64,000 nt of DNA from Terrimicrobium sacchariphilum (GTDB lineage: Bacteria > Verrucomicrobiota > Verrucomicrobiia > Chthoniobacterales > Terrimicrobiaceae), in assembly GCF_001613545.1 (NCBI RefSeq), contig NZ_BDCO01000003.1:558001-622000 (forward strand), written 5' to 3'. Shown one piece after another: positions 828 through 12,185 of the stretch. Below the pieces are notes generated by a model, which did no database searches, was not told the origin of the DNA, and saw nothing but the letters and a program-made list of their open reading frames with translations. The position numbers and the translations under genes were made by a program. Within the stretch, counting starts at the first letter, position 1; every line of letters begins with the position of its first letter.

Positions 828-1895
828 TCATTGCTGCTGACGAGACGAGGATGGGAGTGGCGACCGGCCCGGACCATGTGAGCCAGGATCCACCCATTCG
901 CCATCCAGCATGAGAGTGAGGGGCTGCGAGGGGAGGCCGTGCTGGTTGTTCTGGATCTGGCCGACGAGAAAGGAGACAGCTTCTTTTCCCTGGGCTGACG
1001 GATTCTGAAAGATGCCCGGGCAGTCGCCCCATTCGGGGCTGTGATCGAGCGTCGCGATATCCACCTTATGTGTCAGGCTCGCCGCGTTGCGCTCGAGCCA
1101 TTGCCTGACCTGTAGGTGCATGGTTAGGATCACGTCTGGTTTCTCCCGGAGAACCCAGTCGGACAGAATGTTGGCAGGGAAGGAGTTTTGCGGCAAATAG
1201 AGTGGAGCGGGACGTGATACAGCCGGCAGGTTCTCGTGAAAGGAGAGATACCCGGCGGTCCAAAAGCGATCGAGTTGCCGGTCCATATGGGTGGTCAGCA
1301 CCAGACCGATCCTGCGGTATCCTTTTCGCCGTAGCTGGCGACAGGCCAGCTGGCTGCCGCGACATTGGTTGTGCCTCACACGATGAAGTCCCGGCTGTAC
1401 GAGCGAATTACAAAGCGCCACGGAAGCAAAACCGTGCAAAGGACGGGGCAGATGCCCCTTGCCACGTCGCCATGGACCCAGCAATAGCCCCGGAATGGCC
1501 CGGGTCCGAAGGATCTGAGCGAGCCGGGTGGCATTCAGATCCCCGGAATAGAGGTGAAAGGTCTCCAGCCGATAGCCCATTTCGAGACAGCGTTCCCGAG
1601 CTCCCTCCAGATACTGCTTTTCGAAGATGGACGGGTCCTTAACATCCAGGGACGGATACGAGATGTACGCCAGCACGGAGGAATGGCTGGGTTGGCGTTG
1701 AGCGCGCTTTTGCGCCATTAATGTGGCGACCAGGGGATTCGGACGATACCCCATATGGTTCGCGATCTTCACGACCCGGTCTCGGGTTTTTTCCGCAACT
1801 CTCGGGGAGTTCCGCAGCGCAAGGGCCACCGTGGTAAAATGGATTCCGCAGGCGCGGGCGATATCTCGCACGGTCACCGGTGAATGCATACTCAA
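828..1895 (-). CDS. LacI-family transcriptional regulator (paralogue 1)
   Basis: This 355-residue protein has an N-terminal LacI-type helix-turn-helix (VTVRDIARACGIHFTTVALA, about residues 7-26), a hinge region MGYRPNPLVATLMAQ, and a periplasmic-binding-protein-like effector domain from about residue 75. The recognition helix has H-F-T-T-V where most LacI proteins have a V-S-x-x-T-V pattern, and the hinge lacks the usual ARxL. The same departures occur in the two other LacI proteins of this window (28569-29606 and 47910-49067). It is divergent from the large secreted hydrolase-like gene at 2034 and upstream of the glycoside hydrolase at 1-668. Identical palindromes at 729-743 and 1941-1955 flank it, suggesting autoregulation and control of both neighbours. 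The C-terminal tail is basic and serine-rich. The start could equally be the second ATG, two codons in. Confidence 0.9.
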   Translation of the reverse strand: MSMHSPVTVRDIARACGIHFTTVALALRNSPRVAEKTRDRVVKIANHMGYRPNPLVATLMAQKRAQRQPSHSSVLAYISYPSLDVKDPSIFEKQYLEGARERCLEMGYRLETFHLYSGDLNATRLAQILRTRAIPGLLLGPWRRGKGHLPRPLHGFASVALCNSLVQPGLHRVRHNQCRGSQLACRQLRRKGYRRIGLVLTTHMDRQLDRFWTAGYLSFHENLPAVSRPAPLYLPQNSFPANILSDWVLREKPDVILTMHLQVRQWLERNAASLTHKVDIATLDHSPEWGDCPGIFQNPSAQGKEAVSFLVGQIQNNQHGLPSQPLTLMLDGEWVDPGSHGPGRSPLPSSSRQQQ

Positions 1896-1940
1896 GACCT
1901 AGTGCCTTTTCCCAAGGGGGCACAAGTTTTCAATCGGAAA

Positions 1941-1955
1941 AATCCTACGTGTAGG
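1941..1955. promoter_or_regulatory. Putative LacI operator in divergent promoter region
   Basis: AATCCTACGTGTAGG contains the imperfect palindrome CCTAC-GT-GTAGG. It sits 46 bp upstream of the LacI start (1895) and 79 bp upstream of the ATG at 2034. The same 15 bases occur inverted at 729-743. Its position also argues that the coding start of the divergent gene lies downstream of it. Confidence 0.65.
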
Positions 1956-2033
1956 CATGAGTCGCCATTGAGGACGGGAGGACGATGCGGGAACGTCTGG
2001 ATCTCGTCCATGTATTCCCCTCACGGCTTCCCT

Positions 2034-5000
2034 ATGACATCTCGCGCCTTGTATTCGGTGTCTCGTACCACGGGCGTGTGCATCCTTGTCTTGATCCTGA
2101 GTATTTGTCGTGACGTTTCTGCCAAGGACTTGGAAACCCAATGTCATGCCATTGCACTTGAAGGAGTCTGGCGATTTTTCCGCGACAAGGAGACGAAGCC
2201 GCAGGACGAAAAAGCCTCGAGGAATAATGCGGCGGAGCCGATGGCTGCGCCAGATCTCGACGACTCCGGATGGGAGGAAATACGCGTTCCTGGCGCCTAT
2301 GATCACCAGGGGCCGGCCTTTCTGGGGGTAGCTTGGTATCGGCGCGAGGTCATGGTGCCGTCCACCTGGAAGGGGAAGCCCGTCTTTCTGCAATTACCCC
2401 CGGTGGATGACCGGGACGAGACATTCTGGAATGGCGTGCGCATTGGGGCCATGGGGAGCAAGCAGTTCACGACTCCCCGGCTTTACCGCGTGCCGGACGA
2501 GGCGATCCGCTGGGGCGAAAGAAATGTGATCGCGGTGAAAGTGACAAACAACTACATGAGAGGGGGATTTACCTCGGATGGCCCGGCGCGCCTTCTTTCC
2601 CAAGGGCCCTTCGCCATGTTTCCGCCGGATGGTATGGCGCCGCTGGGTGAGGAGGAGATGAAGCTCGATGCCACACGAGATCTGGCGGGAAAACTCGGCA
2701 AGGCCTGGAGTCTGGGTTGGCGTGACGAAGGTACGGCGGATACCCGACCCAAACTGTATGCGAGAAAAGGGTTTCGCCCCGGCGACGAGGCGCTGGGCTT
2801 TGAGATCACGGAGCCAAACGCCAGCGGAGAGTTCGTCGACTACACCCTGCAGGAGAAGGAAATCGGTGCGATCTGGCAGTTGCGCGACTACGATTATCTG
2901 GCATTTGATTACCAGACGGACGACACCGAGGGAGAGATGCGCCTGTATCTGAACCCCGGAGGCTGGCGGTGGGGGAAGGGGCGGCCGGGATACGGAACGA
3001 GCTTTCCCGTACGCAAAGGAGGGTGGACACGTGTCATTCTGCCCTTCTCCGAGTTTCGCGACATTCAGCCGCGGATGACGATTTTCCTTCCCCAAAAGAA
3101 TCTGATCAAAACCCTCTCGCTGGGGTATCGCAACAACGAGATGCAGTCTCCAGGCGAGGTGAAGTTTGCAAATTTCCGCGTCGGACGTTTTAACGCGGCG
3201 AAGAGGGAGTCCGTGCACCTCGATGGTTTTTGGCACCTCGGGCGCGGCGAGACGGAGGATGCAGCGGGCGCTGATTTCCACACGTGGCCGGTGATTGCCG
3301 TGGGATTCTCCTGGACCGCCCAGGGCATCAAGGATGGCGCGGGAACATTTTGGCTCAAGCAGGAGGTGGAGATTCCAGAGACTTGGAAAGGCATGCAATT
3401 GCGTCTGCGTCTCGGCCAGATACGAAGCAGGGACGACGATGCGGAGGTGTTTTTCAACGGTCGGCCGGTCGGAGGGACGACGGACCACGATCCTCAACTT
3501 GACGTGAATATACCCGCCGGACTGGTGAATCCGGGAGGGAAGAACACCGTGGCGGTGCGGCTGCGGTTCAAAGCCGCCCAGAATGCCGGGCTTTTCCCAG
3601 GACCATTTGAGATCCTTCCACAGCAGGTGTGGGTTGCCATGCGCGAGGCTGGCTCTGGCGAAGAACCAGTTGTTTCCACCGAGTTTGATCCTGGTCCGGT
3701 TGTCGGAGGTAGGAAATACGAACTCTTCCTGCGTCTGCCGCTGAATGCGAATGCGATAACGGGCGGGCGGGTGACCTATGTCGTCAAGGATTGCTTTCAC
3801 CGCGTTGTCGCGGAAGGGGAGGGCGTTCCGACGCCCGTCCCGGACACAAACTTCCAGGAACTGGCGGTAAAGCTGAGCGAAGCTCAGTCGCGCCAACTTT
3901 ACTTCTCCGAGTTTTTTGACGTCCACGTCCTGGCCACAAACGTGAATGGCGCCCCTATTTTTGCCGGCACACAGTTGAAATCGGCAATGAGGTTTGACCA
4001 ACGCGACGCTTACGAACGCGCGCCCCTGGCCGAATCGTGGGAGGAGACGCCCTATGGCCGGCTCAAGCTGATCGACGTGATCGAGGCCGGGAAAGACCCC
4101 TCGGCCCAGGGCTATGTGTACAAGCAAGGCGGTCACCGCGAGAGCTGGGTCGGGCGGCGTGCTTACTCAACGCAGGTCCAAGGCGTGACAGTGGAGGAGT
4201 TCCTTGGCCGAAAATACCGCGAGGCAAACAATAACGAGTGGTTCGGTTACCGTGTGGGACGCGGTCGGATGATTCCCGGCAAAGCCTACCTGGTTCGCAT
4301 CGAGTATCCGGAGGACAAGACCCGGTACGCTCCCATCAATATCGATGCAGGTCGTAACTATCAGGGGCTGGGCTATAAGACAGGAGTTGGGCCGGGAGAT
4401 CCCTTCGATGACTATCCGCTCTCCGGGAAATACGAGTTCTTTGACACCGTGGTGATCCCCGATGACACTACCTATGGGAGCAAAGGAAGCCGCACGGTGC
4501 CGTCTGACAAGGGGATCTGGATTTTCTTTCTCGATACCGGCCGAGCCTACGTGCCGCAGTACCAGGCGGGTCCTGCCGTGTCGCGTATCCTCGTTTACGA
4601 GTTGCCGGAGGGGGCGGCGGCTCATGCCGCGGTTCGTTATCCGAAAGACGCGCCACGCCGTTTGTTTGTCGCGGATTGGGAACGTGAACCCGAGTGGGTC
4701 GCCAGGGACATGGTGCAGCACGCGCTCATCTCCGGGTACAATGCCATCGCACCCTCCATCCTCAAGTGGGGTAGCCTCGCCTTCTGGCATGTGGACAATG
4801 TGGAAAAGGTGAAGCTCAGGCCTGTGCGACCCGTAAGGGACGACCTGCCGCCCGACGAGGTCAGCGCGCTCGACCGCTACCTGAAAGCCAGCCGGGAGGC
4901 GGGCATCACCATCTTTCCGCGTCTGGAATACGGCGGAACGGATGCGCTGCCCAAGGAGGCTCGAGCCATCGGACTAGATGGCAAGCCTGCTCGCCCCAAT

Positions 5001-6182
5001 CGCTTTCACACCTGGTGTTCCAATCTCATGGACCCGAGGGTCGGTGAGGAGTTTTTCGATATTCTGAACCAGGTGGTGGGCAAAAACATCAAGAACAACC
5101 CCCAGTTGGGCGGCATCCTTTTTCGCATTCGCAGCGATCGTCTCCCCATCAGCTACGGACCCTCCGACGTGGCCCAATATGCCAGGGATACCGGAGACAA
5201 TCCTCCGGCTGGCCTCGAAGGCGAAGCGCTCTCAAAATGGGCTTCCGACCCTGAGCGGCAGGGGAAATATGGGGAATGGTGGCAGGGCAAACGCCGTGAC
5301 TTTCATGCTAAAATCGTCGAACAGCTCAAGAGCTACCGTCCCGACTTGCAGATGCTCTACTACAACTGGGATCCCGATCGCTGGAACCTGGGCGAGCACG
5401 AGATGTCGCCGGAAGATTTTCGTGATTTCTACAACGTCCACAAGAGCATCGATTATTACAGGCGCAGTGCGGCGTATCAGAAGGACGTGCCGCCCGGCGA
5501 ATATGTCGCAATGGTCCGGGACCAGGGGTTGCCTCATCACCAGGTGCGGCCGGAACTCTACGCCAGTCTCGATGGATTCGCTCTGCTCGGGCCGGTGAAT
5601 TGGCGCTATCTTGCGGACAATCCACAGTACCTGGATTTTTTCCGAACCGGGCGCCAGCTCGCCTTGACCAAGTTATTTGATTACGAGGAGCACGGTCGCT
5701 GGAATGTTCAGGGAGACAATTACGAGACGAGCGAGCTCATGAGCGGCGGGCCAGCTTTCGCTATGGCCGAACAGGTGCTCGCCGTTTTCCATGGTGATCC
5801 ATGGATTTTCACGGAGACGGCCTACACCTATGGAGGCGGATACATGGAGCAACATCGGGAGTTCGCGCAGGCTTTTCTCTCTTTGCCTGCCATGCCAGGG
5901 CAGGTGGTAGCCACGCCCGGAGTGGAAAAGGCGGATGACCTGCGGGTGCGCCGATACGACGTGAAAAATCAAGTGCACCTCTCCGTGGCCTACAAAGGCT
6001 ACACGCCTCAGGTTTTCTCAATGGAACTCCCCGGGCCTTGGGGTGAGTCCGTTACGGTGACTGATCAGGTTTCCGGCGAGAGGGTGCCAGCGGAGGTGCG
6101 CGATGGCAAACTGAGCCTCCATCTCGAACTGCCACCCATGGTGCTGAAGAGCTATCTGGTCGAGCCTTCGCCGAGATCATGA
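2034..6182 (+). CDS. Large secreted multidomain hydrolase-like protein (GH2-type jelly rolls plus TIM-barrel-like C-terminus)
   Basis: The frame is open from 1884, but I place the start at ATG 2034 because it begins a typical signal peptide (MTSRALYSVSRTT, then a hydrophobic stretch ending VSA) and lies after the putative operator. The 1382-residue protein shows an N-terminal GH2-like sugar-binding fold (LEGVWRFF ... WYRREVMVP ... FWNGVRIG ... ERNVIAVKVTN, about residues 25-190), a middle beta-rich CBM-like section, and a second GH2-like jelly roll near residues 395-520 (LDGFWHLG ... FFNGRPVGG). From about residue 876 to 1290 there is an alpha/beta, TIM-barrel-like region (LFVADWEREPEW ... 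ITIFPRLEYGG ... MLYYNWDPDRW). I do not recognise a named GH family for this last part, and candidate catalytic acids cannot be fixed by eye. Probably a LacI-controlled extracellular or periplasmic enzyme on a plant or algal glycan. Confidence 0.8.
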   Translation: MTSRALYSVSRTTGVCILVLILSICRDVSAKDLETQCHAIALEGVWRFFRDKETKPQDEKASRNNAAEPMAAPDLDDSGWEEIRVPGAYDHQGPAFLGVAWYRREVMVPSTWKGKPVFLQLPPVDDRDETFWNGVRIGAMGSKQFTTPRLYRVPDEAIRWGERNVIAVKVTNNYMRGGFTSDGPARLLSQGPFAMFPPDGMAPLGEEEMKLDATRDLAGKLGKAWSLGWRDEGTADTRPKLYARKGFRPGDEALGFEITEPNASGEFVDYTLQEKEIGAIWQLRDYDYLAFDYQTDDTEGEMRLYLNPGGWRWGKGRPGYGTSFPVRKGGWTRVILPFSEFRDIQPRMTIFLPQKNLIKTLSLGYRNNEMQSPGEVKFANFRVGRFNAAKRESVHLDGFWHLGRGETEDAAGADFHTWPVIAVGFSWTAQGIKDGAGTFWLKQEVEIPETWKGMQLRLRLGQIRSRDDDAEVFFNGRPVGGTTDHDPQLDVNIPAGLVNPGGKNTVAVRLRFKAAQNAGLFPGPFEILPQQVWVAMREAGSGEEPVVSTEFDPGPVVGGRKYELFLRLPLNANAITGGRVTYVVKDCFHRVVAEGEGVPTPVPDTNFQELAVKLSEAQSRQLYFSEFFDVHVLATNVNGAPIFAGTQLKSAMRFDQRDAYERAPLAESWEETPYGRLKLIDVIEAGKDPSAQGYVYKQGGHRESWVGRRAYSTQVQGVTVEEFLGRKYREANNNEWFGYRVGRGRMIPGKAYLVRIEYPEDKTRYAPINIDAGRNYQGLGYKTGVGPGDPFDDYPLSGKYEFFDTVVIPDDTTYGSKGSRTVPSDKGIWIFFLDTGRAYVPQYQAGPAVSRILVYELPEGAAAHAAVRYPKDAPRRLFVADWEREPEWVARDMVQHALISGYNAIAPSILKWGSLAFWHVDNVEKVKLRPVRPVRDDLPPDEVSALDRYLKASREAGITIFPRLEYGGTDALPKEARAIGLDGKPARPNRFHTWCSNLMDPRVGEEFFDILNQVVGKNIKNNPQLGGILFRIRSDRLPISYGPSDVAQYARDTGDNPPAGLEGEALSKWASDPERQGKYGEWWQGKRRDFHAKIVEQLKSYRPDLQMLYYNWDPDRWNLGEHEMSPEDFRDFYNVHKSIDYYRRSAAYQKDVPPGEYVAMVRDQGLPHHQVRPELYASLDGFALLGPVNWRYLADNPQYLDFFRTGRQLALTKLFDYEEHGRWNVQGDNYETSELMSGGPAFAMAEQVLAVFHGDPWIFTETAYTYGGGYMEQHREFAQAFLSLPAMPGQVVATPGVEKADDLRVRRYDVKNQVHLSVAYKGYTPQVFSMELPGPWGESVTVTDQVSGERVPAEVRDGKLSLHLELPPMVLKSYLVEPSPRS

Positions 6183-6344
6183 GTCCCGTGACACAGGAAT
6201 CACCTTGTCCATTCTGGCGACAAAGGACGAAACGACCGCGCCAGGCCTTTCCCGGAAGCTGAACCTCCGGCGGAGATGGTGGTCCATGGAGCAATTCCGA
6301 CATCGTTTTCGCCCGCCGCCTCGTCCCTGCCCTGAGGAGACTCC

Positions 6345-7106
6345 ATGCGCAACTACCAGATATTGTTCGCCGTCCTCGTAGCGGAGATTCTTCTGGAGTT
6401 TGCCGCATCGGGACAAGCTGGTCCCCCGATTGCTGTTGCGGCGCACGTAACGACAAGCCCTCCGGAAATCGACGGAGTATTGTCCGCTGGCGAATGGGAG
6501 AACACTGAGGAGATTATCCTGCCTGGCGGCAATCCCACCGTGGTTCGTGCGGAATGGTCGGAAACCGGGCTCTATTTTTCGCTGAAAGCCCTCGACACCA
6601 CGCCATTCATTCGCAAGCCCGGCCTTGAGGCGGAGGGCTCTCTTCATATGCAGGATGTTTGGGAAATCTTCATCGATGTCTTGGGAGATGCCCGTCAGTA
6701 CTACGAGGTGCAAATCGCCCTGTCGGGTGAAACCTATGCCAAGAATCATTTGCTGACTGCCCCGCCCGAGGTGGACGAGACTCATGTCCTGCGCAAAGAG
6801 TTCTGGTGCCGCGAGTGGTGGCCTCAGCCGATTATCCTGCCTGCCGACGTGCGTGCATCGAGTCGATACGACCCGATGAGCGGATGGTGGACCGCGGAGA
6901 TTTTTCTGCCGGCGGGATTTGTCAACAAGCGCCGCGGTGGGTGTCCTCTGAGTGCCGGTGTGATCCGATTGAACCTCGTTCGTCACGATTGGAAGAACGC
7001 CACCGATGCCGACTTTCTTTACTGGGCCCCTGTGAAATCCGGACATCCGCACCTTTCTCCTACGGTCATGGGAACCCTGCGATTGGAGGGAACTTCGGGC
7101 AGGTGA
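6345..7106 (+). CDS. Secreted CBM9-like (DOMON-type) carbohydrate-binding protein
   Basis: This 253-residue protein begins with a short hydrophobic leader (YQILFAVLVAEILLEFAASG) and continues as a single beta-sandwich of the CBM9-like type: EIDGVLSAGEWENTEEI near the N-terminus, then VVRAEWSETGLYFSLKALD, DVWEIFIDV, YYEVQIALSGE and a terminal GTLRLEG strand. The IDG-x-LS-x-xEW opening is characteristic of carbohydrate-binding domains attached to xylanases and related enzymes, here as a stand-alone domain. A good ribosome-binding site (TGAGGAG, five bases before the ATG) supports the start. It follows the large hydrolase-like gene in the same direction after 162 bp, so it may belong to the same LacI-controlled locus. 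Ligand unknown. Confidence 0.75.
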   Translation: MRNYQILFAVLVAEILLEFAASGQAGPPIAVAAHVTTSPPEIDGVLSAGEWENTEEIILPGGNPTVVRAEWSETGLYFSLKALDTTPFIRKPGLEAEGSLHMQDVWEIFIDVLGDARQYYEVQIALSGETYAKNHLLTAPPEVDETHVLRKEFWCREWWPQPIILPADVRASSRYDPMSGWWTAEIFLPAGFVNKRRGGCPLSAGVIRLNLVRHDWKNATDADFLYWAPVKSGHPHLSPTVMGTLRLEGTSGR

Positions 7107-7281
7107 TGAAAGCTGGTTTTCGCCTTTTCTCGTCTCGGGTCAAAAAACCTTGCGACGACATGTTCCCTTTGGGGTTTATCTCCATTGTCTGGAGACGATA
7201 GTTGGGTAAGGTTATCTGGTGTTGGGCGGATGAACGACTTTCGCCCGACATGAAAATCCACCCGCCGGAGACGATCTGATT
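7107..7281. other. Leader region of the WXG/FtsK cassette with two small inverted repeats
   Basis: This 175-bp gap precedes the cassette starting at 7282. It holds a perfect 6-bp inverted repeat TCTCCA-N5-TGGAGA at 7179-7195 and a second short stem GGGCG/CGCCC at 7224-7228 and 7242-7246. Neither has a T-tract, so they are candidates for an operator or mRNA leader structure rather than a terminator. I could not pick out a convincing sigma-70 promoter. Confidence 0.35.
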
Positions 7282-7554
7282 ATGGCCCAAGCGATAATGG
7301 ACCCCGAGGAAGTTCGGAGATTCGCTCGCGAACTCAAACGCTTCAATGATGACGTGACGACCAAGGCCTCGGCGCTCCAGGCCCAGTTTGCGGCGCTGGG
7401 CAGTTCCTGGCAGGACCAGGAGCACGAGAAATTTGCCGAGGAATTCCTCGTTACCATGAAGGCGTTAAGGAAGTTTGTGGAGATCTCGGAAAATCATACG
7501 CCCTACCTCCTGCGCAAGGCTCAACGCATCGAAGAGTATCTGAATCAACGTTAG
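7282..7554 (+). CDS. WXG100-like small helical protein (W-Q-D variant)
   Basis: This 90-residue protein has the size and shape of a WXG100 (ESAT-6/YukE-like) protein: a charged first helix (about residues 8-39), a turn LGSSWQDQ with Trp43, and a second helix (about 48-88) with aromatics at Phe51 and Phe55. The family's W-x-G turn is here W-Q-D, with Asp45 in the glycine position. There is no signal peptide. WXG100 proteins form helical-hairpin dimers and are exported by FtsK/SpoIIIE-type ATPases; the ATPase gene is three genes downstream in the same tight operon (5 bp to the next gene). The 70-residue protein at 8087 shares the W-Q-D-x5-F-x3-(F/Y)-L pattern exactly. Function as secreted substrate or structural adaptor is inference. 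Confidence 0.72.
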   Translation: MAQAIMDPEEVRRFARELKRFNDDVTTKASALQAQFAALGSSWQDQEHEKFAEEFLVTMKALRKFVEISENHTPYLLRKAQRIEEYLNQR

Positions 7555-7559
7555 CGCCG

Positions 7560-8090
7560 ATGTCCGATCAGGCCAAAGTCAGTTCCATCGAGGCGATAGA
7601 GGAGTTTCGCTCCCGCGTGATCGTCTATGTGAATCAGGCTCATTCCCGTCTCGACGAGGTTGGCGATGAGGTGAGAAGGACTCGGAGTTGGTTGCAGACA
7701 GAGCAGAGGATGCACTGGGAGGGTGAGATCCGACGCCGGAAGCGTGTTCTCGATCAGGCCGAGGCGGAATTGATGAATTCCCGGCTTTCGTCGATGAAAG
7801 ACTCGAATACCCTGCAGATGCTTGCAGTCACCCGCGCCAGGCTCTCTCTCCAAGAGGCGGAGGGAAAGCTGCTGAACGTTAAGCGCTGGTTCCGTGTGTA
7901 CGAGTCACAGGTTTCTCCCCTGCTAAAGAAGCTGGAATCTCTGCGCAGTGTCCTCGACCGCGAAATGCCAAAAGCCCTGGCTTACCTGCTCCAGATTGAA
8001 AATGCCCTGGAGGCTTACGCCGAGTCTGGTCCGGTGGCTGCCGCCGTCCATGAGGCGCCGGTCTCTCCCCATCCTTCTCCAGAATCATGA
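7560..8090 (+). CDS. Coiled-coil protein of WXG/FtsK cassette, carries a W-E-G motif
   Basis: This 176-residue protein is almost entirely predicted helix, rich in Glu, Arg and Leu, with heptad-like stretches (RRRKRVLDQAEAEL; LLKKLESLRSVLDREM) and a proline-rich tail (APVSPHPSPES). I recognise no catalytic domain, signal peptide or membrane segment. Near residue 53 there is a literal W-E-G triplet after a first helix, reminiscent of WXG/LXG-type export substrates, but flanking aromatic spacing does not match the two smaller cassette proteins. It starts 5 bp after the 90-residue protein and overlaps the next gene by ATGA, so it is co-translated with the cassette. It may be a partner or chaperone of the WXG-like proteins, a substrate, or a structural element; the sequence does not decide. 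Confidence 0.7.
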   Translation: MSDQAKVSSIEAIEEFRSRVIVYVNQAHSRLDEVGDEVRRTRSWLQTEQRMHWEGEIRRRKRVLDQAEAELMNSRLSSMKDSNTLQMLAVTRARLSLQEAEGKLLNVKRWFRVYESQVSPLLKKLESLRSVLDREMPKALAYLLQIENALEAYAESGPVAAAVHEAPVSPHPSPES

Positions 8091-8299
8091 GTGTTGTTTC
8101 CGCCTCAGCCCGTCTCATTCAATCCACAAAGGATCTCATGCTGGAGTGGGAACGCACGGCGGAGAGATGGCAGGATGCGAAGAGCCGGGAGTTTCATGAG
8201 GCATATCTGGAGGAGTTACCGCAGCACGTCATCCGGGCGACCGAGGCGATCGAGGAAATCCACACTTTGCTAAGAAAGGTGAAAGCCGATTGTGAATAG
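8087..8299 (+). CDS. Second WXG100-like small helical protein (W-Q-D variant)
   Basis: This 70-residue protein is a compact helix-turn-helix hairpin: helix 1 about residues 3-27, turn TAERWQDAK with Trp28, helix 2 about residues 31-68. Trp28-Gln29-Asp30, Phe36, Tyr40 and Leu41 fall at the same relative spacing as Trp43-Gln44-Asp45, Phe51, Phe55 and Leu56 in the 90-residue protein at 7282, so the two are probably a paralogous pair, as ESX substrates often are. It starts in an ATGA overlap with the preceding gene and overlaps the GTG start of the ATPase gene by 8 bp, implying translational coupling. There is no leader peptide. Too short to score well in family searches, which could explain its omission from automatic annotation. 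Confidence 0.7.
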   Translation: MSVVSASARLIQSTKDLMLEWERTAERWQDAKSREFHEAYLEELPQHVIRATEAIEEIHTLLRKVKADCE

Positions 8300-11200
8300 C
8301 TCAGCAGACCTCCGAGTGCAGCGCAGTCTGGCGCTGGTAAAATACCTGAAGGCGGTGACTGAGGAGTTCGCGCAAAAGGAAAGCGCGCTCTTGAGGGAAA
8401 TCAGCGCGCGGCGTGTGGCGGAGACACGAAAGTTCCGGGAGGAACAGGCCCGATTGGAAAACTGGCTGGCTGCCGAGACCGCTCTTGCGGATACGCGATT
8501 TCAGGAGCGAAAAGGGGAGGTCGAACATCGGGCAGCGCTGCGGGAGGCGCGGATTCGGAAGGCACATCGTACCGGTCTGGAGAATCTCCAGGAGCAGGCC
8601 AGACTGGCCAAGGAACGCTGGCTGGGAAACCTGCAGATGCGGCATTTCCGGGCTACAAGGACGTTGCCCCTCGATCTCAGGGCTGCGGACGAGGCGTATG
8701 CGGATTATTCTTCCAAGTTGGGCGGCTGGCAGGTGGCGGTGGCAGCGCTGGAACGAAAGGTGCGGGGAGCTTTTCGCGGCTATTGGACCTTTGGCAAACT
8801 GATAAAAACATCGTCCCCCGATCTGGCATCGGAGCCTCAGGACAGGTTCGTGCTCTTTGCGAAACTCCAGCAGGCTTATCGAGATGCCGAGGAGCGACTG
8901 GCGGAATTTCAAAAAATCGAGATTCCGAGGTATTTCAGTTTTTTACCTCCCCAACTCCTTATCCCATTGCTGGTGGCGATCCCGCTCGTTTCTTATTTCA
9001 TTGGTTCTCTGCCGCTTTTGACCATTGGCTCTGCGGCGGCCGATACTGTCTTGCTCGGGGCGATCTTCATTTTGCATCAAAAGGGACGGAGGCAGTCCCA
9101 GACGTCCGCCGAGGCGCTATCCGCAGCAGTGGCCCATGCGTGTGGGCTGGCTCGGCTTTGCCACGTTGTTGCCAACAGCCAGTACCAGGAAAAGCGTGAG
9201 AGACTCCAGCGTGAGTACGACCAGCTTTGCGCGGAGCTTGCGGAGAAGTGGGAGCAGGGCGATGCGATCGAAAGCCGGTTTGCCGTGGAGATTCGGGACA
9301 AGATCGAGGCGCAGGCTCCCCGGCTCTTGCTGCGGAATCAGGAATGGCGGACGGCTCGGCTGGAGCGAAACCAGGAGACCTATGAGGAGCGTCAGCGAGA
9401 AATCGCGGCCAGGGTCGAACCGTGGCGCGCTCAGACCTCCACAGCGTATGCTGCGGAAAGCTCGGCCTCGCAGGTCGAGGAGGAGGCGCGTTGGACAGAA
9501 CTGAAATTCGCATGGGAAGAGGCGATGAATCCACTGCTCGCCGATGTTGCCGCGATGCAGTCCACGGTGGCCGATACAGGCGCCCCCTGGGATGCCGATC
9601 TGGTGGAACACTGGACCCCGCCCGCCATCTTCAGCCCGGCCATTCAGCTGGGGGGATTGGTCGTGGATCTCGCCACGACGCCGCATCCGCGTGATTCCAG
9701 GCTCCGCATGCCGGAACCGGCGATACTCAACATCCCGCTCGCGCTATCGTTTCCCTCGCAGGGGTCATTGCTCTTTGAAACGTCCGAATCGGGCGCGGCG
9801 GAAGTGGCTGCAGTTTTCAATAACGCCATTTTACGCCTGCTCACCCACGCTCCTCCGGGAAAGCTGAATTTCACCATCCTGGATCCCGTCGGGCTGGGGC
9901 AGAATTTCGCCGGGCTCATGCACCTGACCGATTTTGAGGAGTCGCTCATCAACCGCCGCATCTGGACCCAGCGCGAGCAGATCGAGGAACGCCTCGCGGA
10001 GCTCAACGAGCATATTGAAAAGGTGATCCAGATGTATCTCCGCAACGAGTACGAGACGATCACCGAGTACAACGCCCAGGCGGGCAGCGTGGCGGAGAAA
10101 TATCACTTCCTCGTGGTGTCGGATTTCCCGGCGAACTTCAGCGAAACTGCCGCCAAGCGCCTCCAGAGCATCGTGACCTCCGGACCGCGCTGCGGCGTCT
10201 TCACCTTCCTCCACTGGGATCGCCGCCAGCCAGTGCCGGATGGGTTCGTGCCCGAGGAACTGCGCAAGAACGCCATCTGCCTCCGCCGGGATCATAACCG
10301 GTGGATTTTCCCGGCGGAGAAAACTCAGCCCGACGCCGTGGTCGCACTCGACCCGCCGCCGAGGAACGAACTGGCGGTGGATCTGGTGCACAAGATTGGC
10401 CAGAGCAGTATTGACTCCAATCGCGTCGAGGTGCCCTTTTCGCAGATCGCGCCGGGCGAGGCGGAACTCTGGACCGGCGATACCACGAGCGAGCTCAAGG
10501 TCGCCATCGGGCGCACGGGAGCCACGAAGCTCCAGTATCTCGCGATCGGCAAGGGGACACGCCAGCATGCGCTCTTTGCCGGAAAGACCGGATCGGGCAA
10601 ATCGACACTGTTTCACGTCATCATCACGAATCTCTCGCTCTGGTGCAGCCCGGAGCAGGTGGAGTTTTACCTGATCGACTTCAAGAAAGGCGTTGAGTTC
10701 AAGTGCTACGCCGAGCATCGCCTGCCGCATGCAAAGGTCGTCGCCATCGAGAGCGATCGAGAGTTTGGGCTGAGCGTTCTGCAGCGGGTCGATCTGGAGC
10801 TGAAGCGACGTGGCGACATGTTTCGCAAGCTCGGCGTGCAGGACATCGCGGGCTACAAGCGCGCAGGCGGCACGGAGCCGGTGCCGCGCACGCTGCTGAT
10901 CATCGATGAGTTTCAGGAGTTCTTCGTCGAGGACGACGAGATCGCGCAGACGGCCTCGCTTCTGTTCGACCGCATCGTCCGACAGGGACGCGCCTTCGGC
11001 ATTCATGTACTGCTCGGTTCGCAGACGCTGGGAGGAGCATATACGCTCGCCCGGGCGACCCTTGGGCAGATGGTGATTCGTGTAGCTCTGCAATGCAGTG
11101 AGGCCGATGCCTATCTCATCATGGACGATAACAATCCGGCGCCTCGTTTGCTCTCGCGGCCGGGTGAGGGCATCTACAACGACGCCGCCGGAGCGATTGA

Positions 11201-12185
11201 GGGAAACAGCCCCTTTCAGGTGGTATGGCTGTCCGACTCCGAGCGCGATACGCGGCTGGAGGAAATTCGCACCCTCGCCGAAGAGCGCAAGGAAGTCGCC
11301 GCACCGATTGTCTTTGAGGGAAATGCTCCCGCCGATCTGGAAGAAAATGTTCTGCTGAAGAATGTCATCGCGCACCCGCCGGTTTCCGCTTCGCCCATAG
11401 CGCGTGTTTGGCTGGGAGCGCCCAATTCCATCAAGGGACCGACCGAGGTCGGATTTCAGAACCAGAGCGGCAGCCATTTACTGATCGTGGGGCAGAATGA
11501 CGAGGCCATCTCAACGATGATGAGTGTTTCGCTCCTGGCGCTCGCTGCCCAGCACGCGGGATCAGAGGCCAGATACGTGTTTTTGACGCCGGACGGTCGC
11601 GGTTCGCTGCCGATCCTGGATTCGCTCGCTGCCGCACTCGGGAGCCGCCTGACCGTCGTGCAGAATGATGGCGTGAAAGACGCGATGCTGGCTTTGTCCG
11701 AGGAACTTGCCGCGCGGTCAGCGGGGGAGGGCGGAGCTCATGCTGAGCCGGTGTATGTCTTCATCCATCACCTTGAGCGTTTCAAGAAGCTCCGGAATGA
11801 AGACGACTTTAGCTTCTCCTCCAGCATGGATGCCACGCAGTCTCCGGCGGAGCAGCTTAAGGCTCTGCTTTCCGAGGGGAGCAGCGTCGGAATTCATGTG
11901 CTGGCCTCGATCGATACCTTCAATAATGTCGGGCGCTTCCTGAGCCGGAAGGCGCTGGGCGAATTTGAGATGCGCGTCGTCTTCCAGATGAGCGCGAATG
12001 ACTCGGCGAGCCTGATTGATTCGCCGCAGGCCAGCGCCCTCGGCTTGCATCGAGCCATTCTTTACAACGAGCACAACGGCTCGCTGGAAACGTTCCGACC
12101 CTATGCCGCGCCCGAGAATGACTGGGTGCGGGCGGCGGTGCAAAGCCTCACCGCAGCTTCGGCGGTAGGGACCCCGGCGCGATAA
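8292..12185 (+). CDS. FtsK/SpoIIIE-type (EssC/EccC-like) multi-domain ATPase
   Basis: This 1297-residue protein starts with GTG. Residues 1-210 are coiled coil; 216-260 hold two closely spaced membrane segments (PQLLIPLLVAIPLVSYFIG; TIGSAAADTVLLGAIFILH); another coiled coil follows to about 420. Three FtsK-like modules come next. Module 1 (about 440-650) has no intact P-loop. Module 2 (about 720-990) has Walker A GKTGSGKS at 764-771, Walker B LLIIDEF with Asp872-Glu873, and the FtsK stretch LLGSQTLGG. Module 3 (about 1050-1280) has a degenerate P-loop (VGQNDEAIST) and no acidic Walker B. One active and two degenerate modules in a membrane-anchored protein next to WXG-like genes point to a type VII-like export motor rather than a chromosome translocase; no gamma domain is evident. 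Unlike EssC it has no obvious FHA domains. Confidence 0.85.
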   Translation: MNSSADLRVQRSLALVKYLKAVTEEFAQKESALLREISARRVAETRKFREEQARLENWLAAETALADTRFQERKGEVEHRAALREARIRKAHRTGLENLQEQARLAKERWLGNLQMRHFRATRTLPLDLRAADEAYADYSSKLGGWQVAVAALERKVRGAFRGYWTFGKLIKTSSPDLASEPQDRFVLFAKLQQAYRDAEERLAEFQKIEIPRYFSFLPPQLLIPLLVAIPLVSYFIGSLPLLTIGSAAADTVLLGAIFILHQKGRRQSQTSAEALSAAVAHACGLARLCHVVANSQYQEKRERLQREYDQLCAELAEKWEQGDAIESRFAVEIRDKIEAQAPRLLLRNQEWRTARLERNQETYEERQREIAARVEPWRAQTSTAYAAESSASQVEEEARWTELKFAWEEAMNPLLADVAAMQSTVADTGAPWDADLVEHWTPPAIFSPAIQLGGLVVDLATTPHPRDSRLRMPEPAILNIPLALSFPSQGSLLFETSESGAAEVAAVFNNAILRLLTHAPPGKLNFTILDPVGLGQNFAGLMHLTDFEESLINRRIWTQREQIEERLAELNEHIEKVIQMYLRNEYETITEYNAQAGSVAEKYHFLVVSDFPANFSETAAKRLQSIVTSGPRCGVFTFLHWDRRQPVPDGFVPEELRKNAICLRRDHNRWIFPAEKTQPDAVVALDPPPRNELAVDLVHKIGQSSIDSNRVEVPFSQIAPGEAELWTGDTTSELKVAIGRTGATKLQYLAIGKGTRQHALFAGKTGSGKSTLFHVIITNLSLWCSPEQVEFYLIDFKKGVEFKCYAEHRLPHAKVVAIESDREFGLSVLQRVDLELKRRGDMFRKLGVQDIAGYKRAGGTEPVPRTLLIIDEFQEFFVEDDEIAQTASLLFDRIVRQGRAFGIHVLLGSQTLGGAYTLARATLGQMVIRVALQCSEADAYLIMDDNNPAPRLLSRPGEGIYNDAAGAIEGNSPFQVVWLSDSERDTRLEEIRTLAEERKEVAAPIVFEGNAPADLEENVLLKNVIAHPPVSASPIARVWLGAPNSIKGPTEVGFQNQSGSHLLIVGQNDEAISTMMSVSLLALAAQHAGSEARYVFLTPDGRGSLPILDSLAAALGSRLTVVQNDGVKDAMLALSEELAARSAGEGGAHAEPVYVFIHHLERFKKLRNEDDFSFSSSMDATQSPAEQLKALLSEGSSVGIHVLASIDTFNNVGRFLSRKALGEFEMRVVFQMSANDSASLIDSPQASALGLHRAILYNEHNGSLETFRPYAAPENDWVRAAVQSLTAASAVGTPAR

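What the first reader, a model, noticed from the sequence alone, without database searches (positions are those of the whole stretch)
7282..8299. A matched pair of W-Q-D hairpins, with Asp replacing the WXG glycine
Trp43-Gln-Asp, Phe51, Phe55, Leu56 in the 90-residue protein and Trp28-Gln-Asp, Phe36, Tyr40, Leu41 in the 70-residue protein have identical relative spacing. This suggests paralogous partners of a heterodimer, and explains why the pair could escape a strict W-x-G search.
Basis: seen in the sequence. Interest (0 to 1): 0.7.

Follow-up and report, generated by a model that had tools for sequence, protein, structure and literature searches.

The report
Two paired WXG100-like hairpins beside ATPase
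A four-gene cassette in Verrucomicrobiota pairs two small helical-hairpin proteins related to type VII secretion proteins with a membrane ATPase and a long coiled-coil protein, and looks like a stripped-down, still uncharacterised relative of type VII secretion in bacteria with two membranes.

Summary
The residues are as described. The 90-aa protein (A) is an ordinary Pfam WXG100 member (41.4 bits, cut-off 27.3; 68 of 68 orthologues hit), so it does not escape a profile search. The 70-aa protein (C) does escape Pfam, but is a remote WXG100-type hairpin: confident AlphaFold hairpin, top structural neighbours mostly WXG100 proteins, and A-C profile similarity above composition- and heptad-preserving decoys. 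The conserved signature is W-x-D-x5-F-x3-[FY]; the Q and the Leu are incidental. Its spacing is that of WXG100 proteins generally, so it shows common ancestry, not heterodimerisation, which remains untested; A's nearest solved relative (HP0062) is a homodimer. The real unit is four genes, A-B-C-ATPase, in that order in 91 of 99 testable loci; C occurs in exactly the 48 of 286 class genomes that hold the full-length ATPase. The ATPase has three FtsK/HerA domains, only the middle one with intact Walker motifs, and membrane segments. Such solo-WXG systems were noted in Verrucomicrobia in 2012, and a WXG100 pair beside such an ATPase in 2024 (CoCoNuT loci). New here: the standalone four-gene make-up, W-x-D as the norm, and nucleases in B's slot in related plasmid loci. 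Best reading: reduced type-VII-like export module.

The parts
7282..7554 (+). gene A: 90-aa WXG100 protein with W-x-D instead of W-x-G; the most conserved protein of the operon (mean column identity 81%)
   Evidence: Pfam PF06013 41.4 bits, cut-off 27.3; 68 of 68 orthologues hit PF06013; alignment A1; nearest PDB relative HP0062, E 3.1e-10 over residues 1-89
7408..7416 (+). codons of W43-Q44-D45 of A (W and D invariant in 82/82, Q in 70/82)
7560..8090 (+). gene B: 176-aa coiled-coil protein, two 75-residue helices and a variable, low-confidence Pro/Ala/Ser-rich C-terminal tail; W110 and Y153 invariant
   Evidence: AlphaFold pLDDT 91.6, helices 2-76 and 80-155; alignment A3; no Pfam family above cut-off in the window protein, scattered weak hits in orthologues
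8087..8299 (+). gene C: 70-aa divergent WXG100-type helical hairpin; overlaps B by 4 nt and the ATPase by 8 nt
   Evidence: AlphaFold pLDDT 94.0, helices 3-27, 31-41, 44-69; VIA-align top entries EsxB Z 8.3, EsxEF 8.1, HP0062 8.1; alignment A2; decoy test
8168..8176 (+). codons of W28-Q29-D30 of C (W and D invariant in 91/91, Q in 6/91)
8288..8296 (+). conserved Asp-Cys-Glu tail of C; the TGT-G of Cys-Glu also supplies a GTG, the start codon of the ATPase in the window, in 84 of 92 distinct sequences, so much of its invariance is confounded
8292..12185 (+). [quoted passage not shown]
   Evidence: PF01580 E 2.2e-29; TIGR03924/TIGR03928 partial, below cut-off; EccC/EssC structures; ortholog alignment of 92
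8955..9011 (+). predicted membrane segment of the ATPase, residues 222-240; two such segments in 62, one in 23, none in 7 of 92 sequences
10581..10604 (+). Walker A of the middle ATPase domain (GKTGSGKS, residues 764-771)

Best explanation
The locus is a self-contained, four-gene, type-VII-like translocation module. Shown here: A is a WXG100 protein, C a remote WXG100-type hairpin, B a predicted long antiparallel coiled-coil hairpin, and the fourth gene an EssC/EccC-related ATPase with membrane segments and a single intact ATPase domain; the four genes are co-inherited in fixed order with overlapping or near-overlapping frames. Inferred: the ATPase assembles as a ring in the inner membrane; A and C dimerise (with themselves or with each other) through their hairpins, the W-x-D turn and the aromatic at +8 closing the helix ends as W43/Y51 do in ESAT-6; they deliver B, which sits in the gene slot where related loci of other phyla carry a coiled-coil protein with a nuclease domain, to the ATPase, and B (perhaps with A) is moved across the inner membrane. 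B, having no toxin domain and being conserved, would be a fixed structural or envelope-active passenger and not a polymorphic toxin. Likelihoods: type-VII-like ATPase plus WXG100 module 0.85; C is a true WXG100 relative 0.8; B is the passenger 0.35; A:C heterodimer 0.4.
For: Pfam WXG100 for A; structure and neighbours of C (11 of the first 15 VIA entries are WXG100/Esx proteins by their titles, several of them entries of one protein); decoy-calibrated A-C relation, bridged by the WXG100 of a second-type locus (L134) that scores 73.1 bits with the A model and 20.7 with the C model. A-B-C-ATPase in order on one strand in 91 of 99 loci with at least 1300 nt upstream. C at E < 1e-20 in 48 of 286 class genomes, the same 48 that hold the full-length ATPase (lists compared by eye). 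Nothing else conserved in the flanks: the largest flanking cluster spans 6 loci. Only middle-domain Walker motifs, TM segments in 85 of 92. Slot comparison: Helicobacter sp. plasmid has A-like 89 aa - colicin-DNase/WHH nuclease - SUKH - 77 aa - ATPase; Caballeronia plasmid and L134 have WXG100 - coiled coil with restriction-endonuclease-like end - small genes - ATPase (the nuclease-like ends of the latter two have no Pfam match, and are named after the description in PMC11090510).
Against: No secretion has been shown. The canonical YxxxD/E signal is absent from the last 40 residues of A (0 of 82) and C (0 of 91), present in B in 5 of 89. No YukD or YukC-like protein in the genome, no other WXG100, no second B, hence no obvious further substrates; no outer-membrane component was identified. 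The soluble relatives in TerY-P/CoCoNuT-like loci (no TM in L133, L134, L141) suggest that this ATPase class may also do something other than secretion. B shows no detectable homology to the nuclease-bearing coiled coils. hhalign gives no support for A-C at its usual probability threshold.
Confidence: 0.6

Rival explanations
1. A and C are both WXG100-type hairpins but not partners: A forms homodimers like HP0062, while C is a separate adaptor (comparable to the Lap targeting factors of T7SSb) that binds B or the ATPase.
For: HP0062, the nearest solved relative of A, is reported as an antiparallel homodimer (PMC3397514, passages). A is far more conserved (81% mean column identity) than C (51%), which is not what two obligate equal halves usually show. 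Lap1/Lap2 are WXG100-like, not exported, and bind the LXG cargo (PMC9600955, passages). C is 20 residues shorter and lacks the first 15 residues of the A helix.
Against: Classical Esx pairs are encoded together and heterodimerise; A and C are strictly co-inherited.
Confidence: 0.45
2. The cassette is not a secretion system but an intracellular defence or stress module, like its relatives in TerY-P/CoCoNuT loci, in which the ATPase and coiled coils act on nucleic acid or on infected-cell targets.
For: Relatives with the same gene syntax occur beside VWA, CARF, PP2C and kinase genes and in CoCoNuT loci (PMC11090510, passages). The ATPase's best PADLOC matches are to SspH and mad8 models, through the shared ATPase domain.
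Against: The verrucomicrobial ATPases carry membrane segments (85 of 92; also L135-L137), whereas L133, L134 and L141 have none; B has no nuclease domain; no conserved defence genes flank it.
Confidence: 0.2
3. The resemblance of A and C is convergence of two amphipathic hairpins and C is unrelated to WXG100.
For: hhalign probability 3.5; no Pfam family for C, and among 69 orthologues only scattered hits, WXG100_2 in 4 at best E 0.012; Foldseek E-values of C are above 1; designed hairpins reach Z 7.9.
Against: Column-shuffle, heptad-shuffle and reversed controls; independent TIGR03930 hit of C, E 0.008; WXG100 proteins fill 11 of the first 15 VIA entries; invariant W-x-D-F at the turn.
Confidence: 0.08

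Closest known systems
HP0062 / HP0066 of Helicobacter pylori (structures 3fx7, 2gts)
   Same: Full-length sequence relative of A (E 3.1e-10), Trp-x-Asp in the turn (WRD), genomically linked to an FtsK/SpoIIIE protein (PMC3397514, passages; PMC4978471 calls a cluster there a WXG100 secretion system, passages)
   Different: The H. pylori cluster includes a nuclease of the HNH/ENDO VII superfamily (PMC4978471, passages); I did not read that locus itself. The verrucomicrobial slot holds B, without a nuclease
Solo WXG with three-domain YueA-like ATPase, only the middle domain active (Zhang et al. 2012, PMC3482391, footnote 6 of its table, passages)
   Same: Same phylum named, same ATPase domain pattern, one recognised WXG protein
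   Different: That note speaks of solo WXG domains; C and B are not described in the passages seen
EssC-like ATPase with two WXG100 proteins in Type III-A CoCoNuT loci (PMC11090510, passages)
   Same: Two WXG100-type proteins, one without the motif, beside an ATPase with only the central domain active; a coiled-coil protein in the same operon
   Different: There the ATPase is said to lack TM helices and the coiled coil carries a restriction-endonuclease-like domain; here TM segments and no nuclease
T7SSg (PMC11217815, passages)
   Same: Simple set with two WXG100 proteins and a membrane ATPase without FHA domains
   Different: Found in Acetivibrio and Paenibacillus; has ubiquitin-like TsgB and beta-propeller TsgL, which are not in this operon
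T7SSa/T7SSb (EccC, EssC, EsxA/EsxB; LXG effectors with Lap1/Lap2)
   Same: EccC/EssC-related ATPase and WXG100 fold
   Different: No YukD, YukC, no YxxxD/E tail on A or C, only one intact ATPase domain, the middle one

Membership tests
WXG100 / ESAT-6 superfamily (protein A) | Match to the family profile above its cut-off | tested here: met
   PF06013 41.4 bits vs 27.3; 68 of 68 orthologues hit at E <= 0.1. TIGR03930 31.0 bits is under its stricter cut-off 44.85
WXG100 / ESAT-6 superfamily (protein A) | Literal W-x-G in the turn | tested here: not met
   W-x-D in 82 of 82 distinct sequences. Not decisive, as the curated profile accepts it
WXG100 / ESAT-6 superfamily (protein C) | Match to the family profile above its cut-off | tested here: not met
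   0 Pfam families in the window; TIGR03930 16.4 bits vs 44.85. So C is called WXG100-like, not filed as a Pfam member
WXG100 / ESAT-6 superfamily (protein C) | Antiparallel helical hairpin with Trp at the turn | tested here: met
   Model pLDDT 94, helices 3-27 and 31-69 with a break at 42-43, W28-D30 at the turn; HP0062 Z 8.1, rmsd 1.7 over 65. Z of this size alone is not specific for hairpins; length is 70, not 100
WXG100 / ESAT-6 superfamily (protein C) | C-terminal HxxxD/ExxhxxxH pattern (Poulsen et al. 2014; exact pattern recalled) | tested here: inconclusive
   Loose regular expression in the last 40 residues: 17 of 91 for C, 7 of 82 for A
Type VII secretion system | Membrane EccC/EssC-type ATPase plus WXG100 protein | tested here: met
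Type VII secretion system | Subtype components (YukD/EsaB, YukC/EssB) | tested here: not met
   0 matches in the window's genome for PF08817 and PF10140, Bacillus subtilis found over the cut-off as control. EccB/D/E, EssA, EsaA not searched
Type VII secretion system | YxxxD/E export signal at a C-terminus | tested here: not met
   A 0 of 82, C 0 of 91, B 5 of 89
Type VII secretion system | ATPase-dependent export of substrates | not testable with these tools
   needs an experiment
Mobile T7SS-like systems with mid-domain-active ATPase (Zhang 2012) | Three FtsK/HerA domains, only the middle with Walker motifs | tested here: met
   Walker A and B conserved at 764-771 and 868-874 only; no P-loop in the aligned first- and third-domain stretches that were printed
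CoCoNuT/TerY-P associated WXG100-ATPase operon | Coiled-coil-nuclease gene, VWA/kinase/phosphatase neighbours, ATPase without TM | tested here: not met
   B ends without a recognised nuclease domain; no conserved neighbours; TM segments present

The most novel reading that the evidence does not exclude
A type-VII-like secretion system of LPS-type two-membrane bacteria that has dropped toxins and all subtype-specific parts: two W-x-D hairpins chaperone one fixed coiled-coil passenger (B) through a membrane-anchored, single-engine ATPase, so that the minimal set for type VII export would be four genes.
Probability: 0.25. Interest if true: 0.75.

Novelty: new variant of a known kind. Interest (0 to 1): 0.5.

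Why it matters
Type VII secretion is studied almost only in Gram-positive and mycolic-acid bacteria. A four-gene cassette present in 48 of 286 sampled genomes of the window's class, with the two hairpins, one coiled coil and one ATPase together, would be a very small experimental system in which to ask what the WXG100 pair and the ATPase do on their own. The slot comparison (nuclease elsewhere, B here) also suggests a simple way to find passengers of the related loci: read the gene between the WXG100 and the small hairpin.

Tried and rejected
Paralogy of A or C with B: hhalign E 0.017 and 0.035 with negligible probability; profile score reached by 99 and 110 of 1000 column shuffles; rejected. 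B as LXG domain: LXG among Pfam hits in 2 of 70 members at best E 0.011, no specific fold neighbour for so generic a hairpin; left open. Absence of a fold match for B is not evidence of a new fold. Rotations of the C profile as a null (42 reached the score) were discarded because a rotation keeps the aligned block intact; told here because the number looks unfavourable. The invariant penultimate Cys of C was first taken as a functional residue; in 84 of 92 distinct sequences its TGT-G makes a GTG, the start of the ATPase in the window; the 8 TGC cases keep Cys without that GTG, so some protein-level constraint may remain, but two distant loci have Phe there. RNA families and tRNAs in the window: none. 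PADLOC: only ATPase-domain matches for the ATPase and weak matches for A and B. Phages: no relative of the Caballeronia WXG100. Plasmids: ATPase relatives in 5 records of 72,556, none covering 80%; 4 of the 5 were opened, the second Rhodococcus record was not. Rows dropped: 4 of 52 genomes with weak partial C hits (E 1.7e-4 to 5.9e-4, residues 36-65) were not counted as C, G060 (253 residues, 36%) was not counted as full-length ATPase, 8 of 99 loci failed, three of them (L035, L050, L056) with all genes present on mechanically extended ORFs and five with a gene missing from my ORF list; loci L001 and L003 (the window itself) were left out of the ortholog sets.

Papers: PMC3482391, PMC11090510, PMC3397514, PMC4978471, PMC3935865, PMC9600955, PMC11217815, PMC3796261 were seen as passages (PMC11217815 also as outline and abstract); others only as search listings. 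Searches behind the statement that I found no description of this four-gene set in print: (open-access library only; Anantharaman et al. 2012 is not held, and is known here only through PMC11090510 and PMC4978471). The names CARF, VWA and PP2C for genes of L134 are my reading of the sequence by analogy with the annotated record L141.

Full report
Observation.

Is it more than chance? With the two window sequences alone, no (567 of 5000 shuffles). With families, yes. I collected orthologues with the search for related loci (80 loci) and the genome search and found A, B and C upstream of the ATPase by iterated HMMs. Distinct sequences: A 82, B 89, C 91. In A, W43, D45 and F51 are invariant and F55 is Phe in 81 (Tyr in one); in C, W21, W28, D30, F36, L44 and C69 are invariant. 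The Q is common in A (70 of 82) but rare in C (6 of 91, Arg in 58), and the Leu at +13 is not conserved in A (6 of 82). The best ungapped profile alignment pairs A 32-59 with C 17-44 at offset 15, that is, W with W and D with D; 0 of 1000 column shuffles and 1 of 1000 heptad-preserving shuffles reach its score. HMM cross-scores beat reversed, shuffled and heptad-shuffled decoys: for the C model on 82 A sequences no decoy of 1640 heptad shuffles reaches the median; for the A model on 91 C sequences the separation is weaker (median 6.9 bits; 14 of 1820 heptad decoys reach it, none the maximum 14.8). A WXG100 protein from a second-type locus (L134) scores with both models, 73.1 and 20.7 bits, its own heptad shuffles reaching at most 13.4 and 11.0. 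Against: hhalign probability 3.5, E 0.012, and the divergent C of L136 scores 17.2 bits with the A model while its own shuffles reach 17.1.

What A and C are. A passes Pfam's WXG100 gathering score; the Pfam model is hit by 68 of 68 orthologues. Its nearest solved relatives are HP0062 of H. pylori, then EsxB and EsxA proteins. C hits no Pfam family, only TIGR03930 weakly. Its AlphaFold model (69 sequences) is a confident hairpin (pLDDT 94). Foldseek finds no significant match (best E 1.4), as one would expect of a short hairpin; VIA-align, on Foldseek's own 142 candidates, puts EsxB (Z 8.3), EsxEF (8.1) and HP0062 (8.1, rmsd 1.7 over 65) first, with designed hairpins close behind at 7.9. Model residues 1-67 align with HP0062 16-80, about the offset found by sequence. 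I therefore call C a remote WXG100-type hairpin and not a member of the Pfam family.

The spacing W to aromatic +8 is not special to this pair: in ESAT-6, W43 and Y51 close the helix ends together (PMC3935865, passages). It shows that both proteins are of the WXG100 kind, not that they pair with each other.

Asp for Gly. In a sample of 387 genomes of the phylum, PF06013 gives 23 places in 21 genomes; 21 of the 23 have W-x-D; the two others lie together in one MAG (G550, 82% complete), beside what looks by eye like an actinobacterial ESX gene set, probably a mis-binned contig. Related proteins on plasmids of Helicobacter (WGD), Caballeronia (WQD), Deinococcus (WQD, WND) and Rhodococcus (WKD) share it, as does HP0062 (WRD). 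So W-x-D marks the WXG100 proteins that go with this kind of ATPase, as far as these examples reach.

The unit. Of 99 loci with at least 1300 nt upstream of the ATPase, 91 have A, B and C in order on the same strand. In the class sample, full-length ATPase and C (E < 1e-20) occur in the same 48 of 286 genomes, one C each; 7 of 7 sampled genomes of other genera in the window's own family lack both. In the phylum sample A occurs in 20 of 387. No flanking gene family is shared by more than 6 loci. The window's genome has one A, one B, one C, one such ATPase (the second hit there is a partial FtsK-like match), and no YukD or YukC. A is the most conserved member (81% mean column identity, against 51% for C and 45% for B).

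The ATPase. 210 positions are conserved in at least 98% of 92 sequences; Walker A (764-771) and Walker B (868-874) lie only in the middle domain; the first and third domains keep FtsK-like conservation without a P-loop in the stretches printed. Two hydrophobic segments between residues 150 and 350 are seen in 62, one in 23 and none in 7 of 92. Relatives in the second-type loci L133 and L134 and in Caballeronia have none.

The slot between A and C. B is predicted as two 75-residue helices with a low-confidence tail and has only generic coiled-coil neighbours. In related loci the same place holds a nuclease: in the Helicobacter sp. NHP19-012 plasmid a 340-aa protein with colicin-DNase and WHH matches followed by a SUKH protein; in Caballeronia and L134 a coiled coil whose end I read as restriction-endonuclease-like after PMC11090510 (no Pfam match). 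B is not detectably homologous to them, so 'B is the passenger' rests on gene order alone. The 76-82 aa proteins before the ATPase in those loci do not score with the C model either (1.7 to 5.5 bits where scored), so that they are C's counterparts also rests on position and size.

What was known. [quoted passage not shown] PMC11090510 (2024) describes two WXG100 proteins, one without the motif, beside such an ATPase in CoCoNuT loci. PMC3397514 notes WRD in HP0062. I found no description of the verrucomicrobial A-B-C-ATPase set, of C, or of B in the searches listed under Tried and rejected.

Verdict. The locus is a variant of a known kind with an unexplored function.

Noticed in passing
L139 (Helicobacter sp. 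NHP19-012 plasmid), 3749-8151: WXG100-like (WGD) - colicin-DNase/WHH nuclease - SUKH - 77 aa - FtsK/SpoIIIE ATPase: looks like a nuclease-immunity pair inside a WXG100-ATPase cassette.
   Followed up: partly
L134 2395-10501 and L141 2558-14208: VWA - WXG100 (WQD) - coiled coil with nuclease-like end - small genes - ATPase without TM - further VWA and PP2C genes: TerY-P/CoCoNuT-like setting; G426 (L134, L135) holds both this and the standalone cassette.
   Followed up: partly
L140 (Deinococcus actinosclerus plasmid) 5839-10641: ATPase followed by several helical proteins with W-x-D (88 and 144 aa) and a 326-aa coiled coil; no Walker A of the form GxxxxGK[ST] found in that ATPase.
   Followed up: no
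window 8288-8299: The conserved Asp-Cys-Glu end of C shares its bases with the GTG start of the ATPase; the GTG is there in 84 of 92 distinct sequences, a case where an overlap can mimic an invariant residue.
   Followed up: yes
L165 / G550:C115: A MAG of the phylum with two other WXG100 genes (one with W-Q-G) beside PPE-like genes, probably a mis-binned actinobacterial contig.
   Followed up: no
window 1884-6182: 1432-aa ORF with glycosyl hydrolase family 2 sugar-binding domain and further jelly-roll-like matches, upstream of the cassette and not conserved with it.
   Followed up: no
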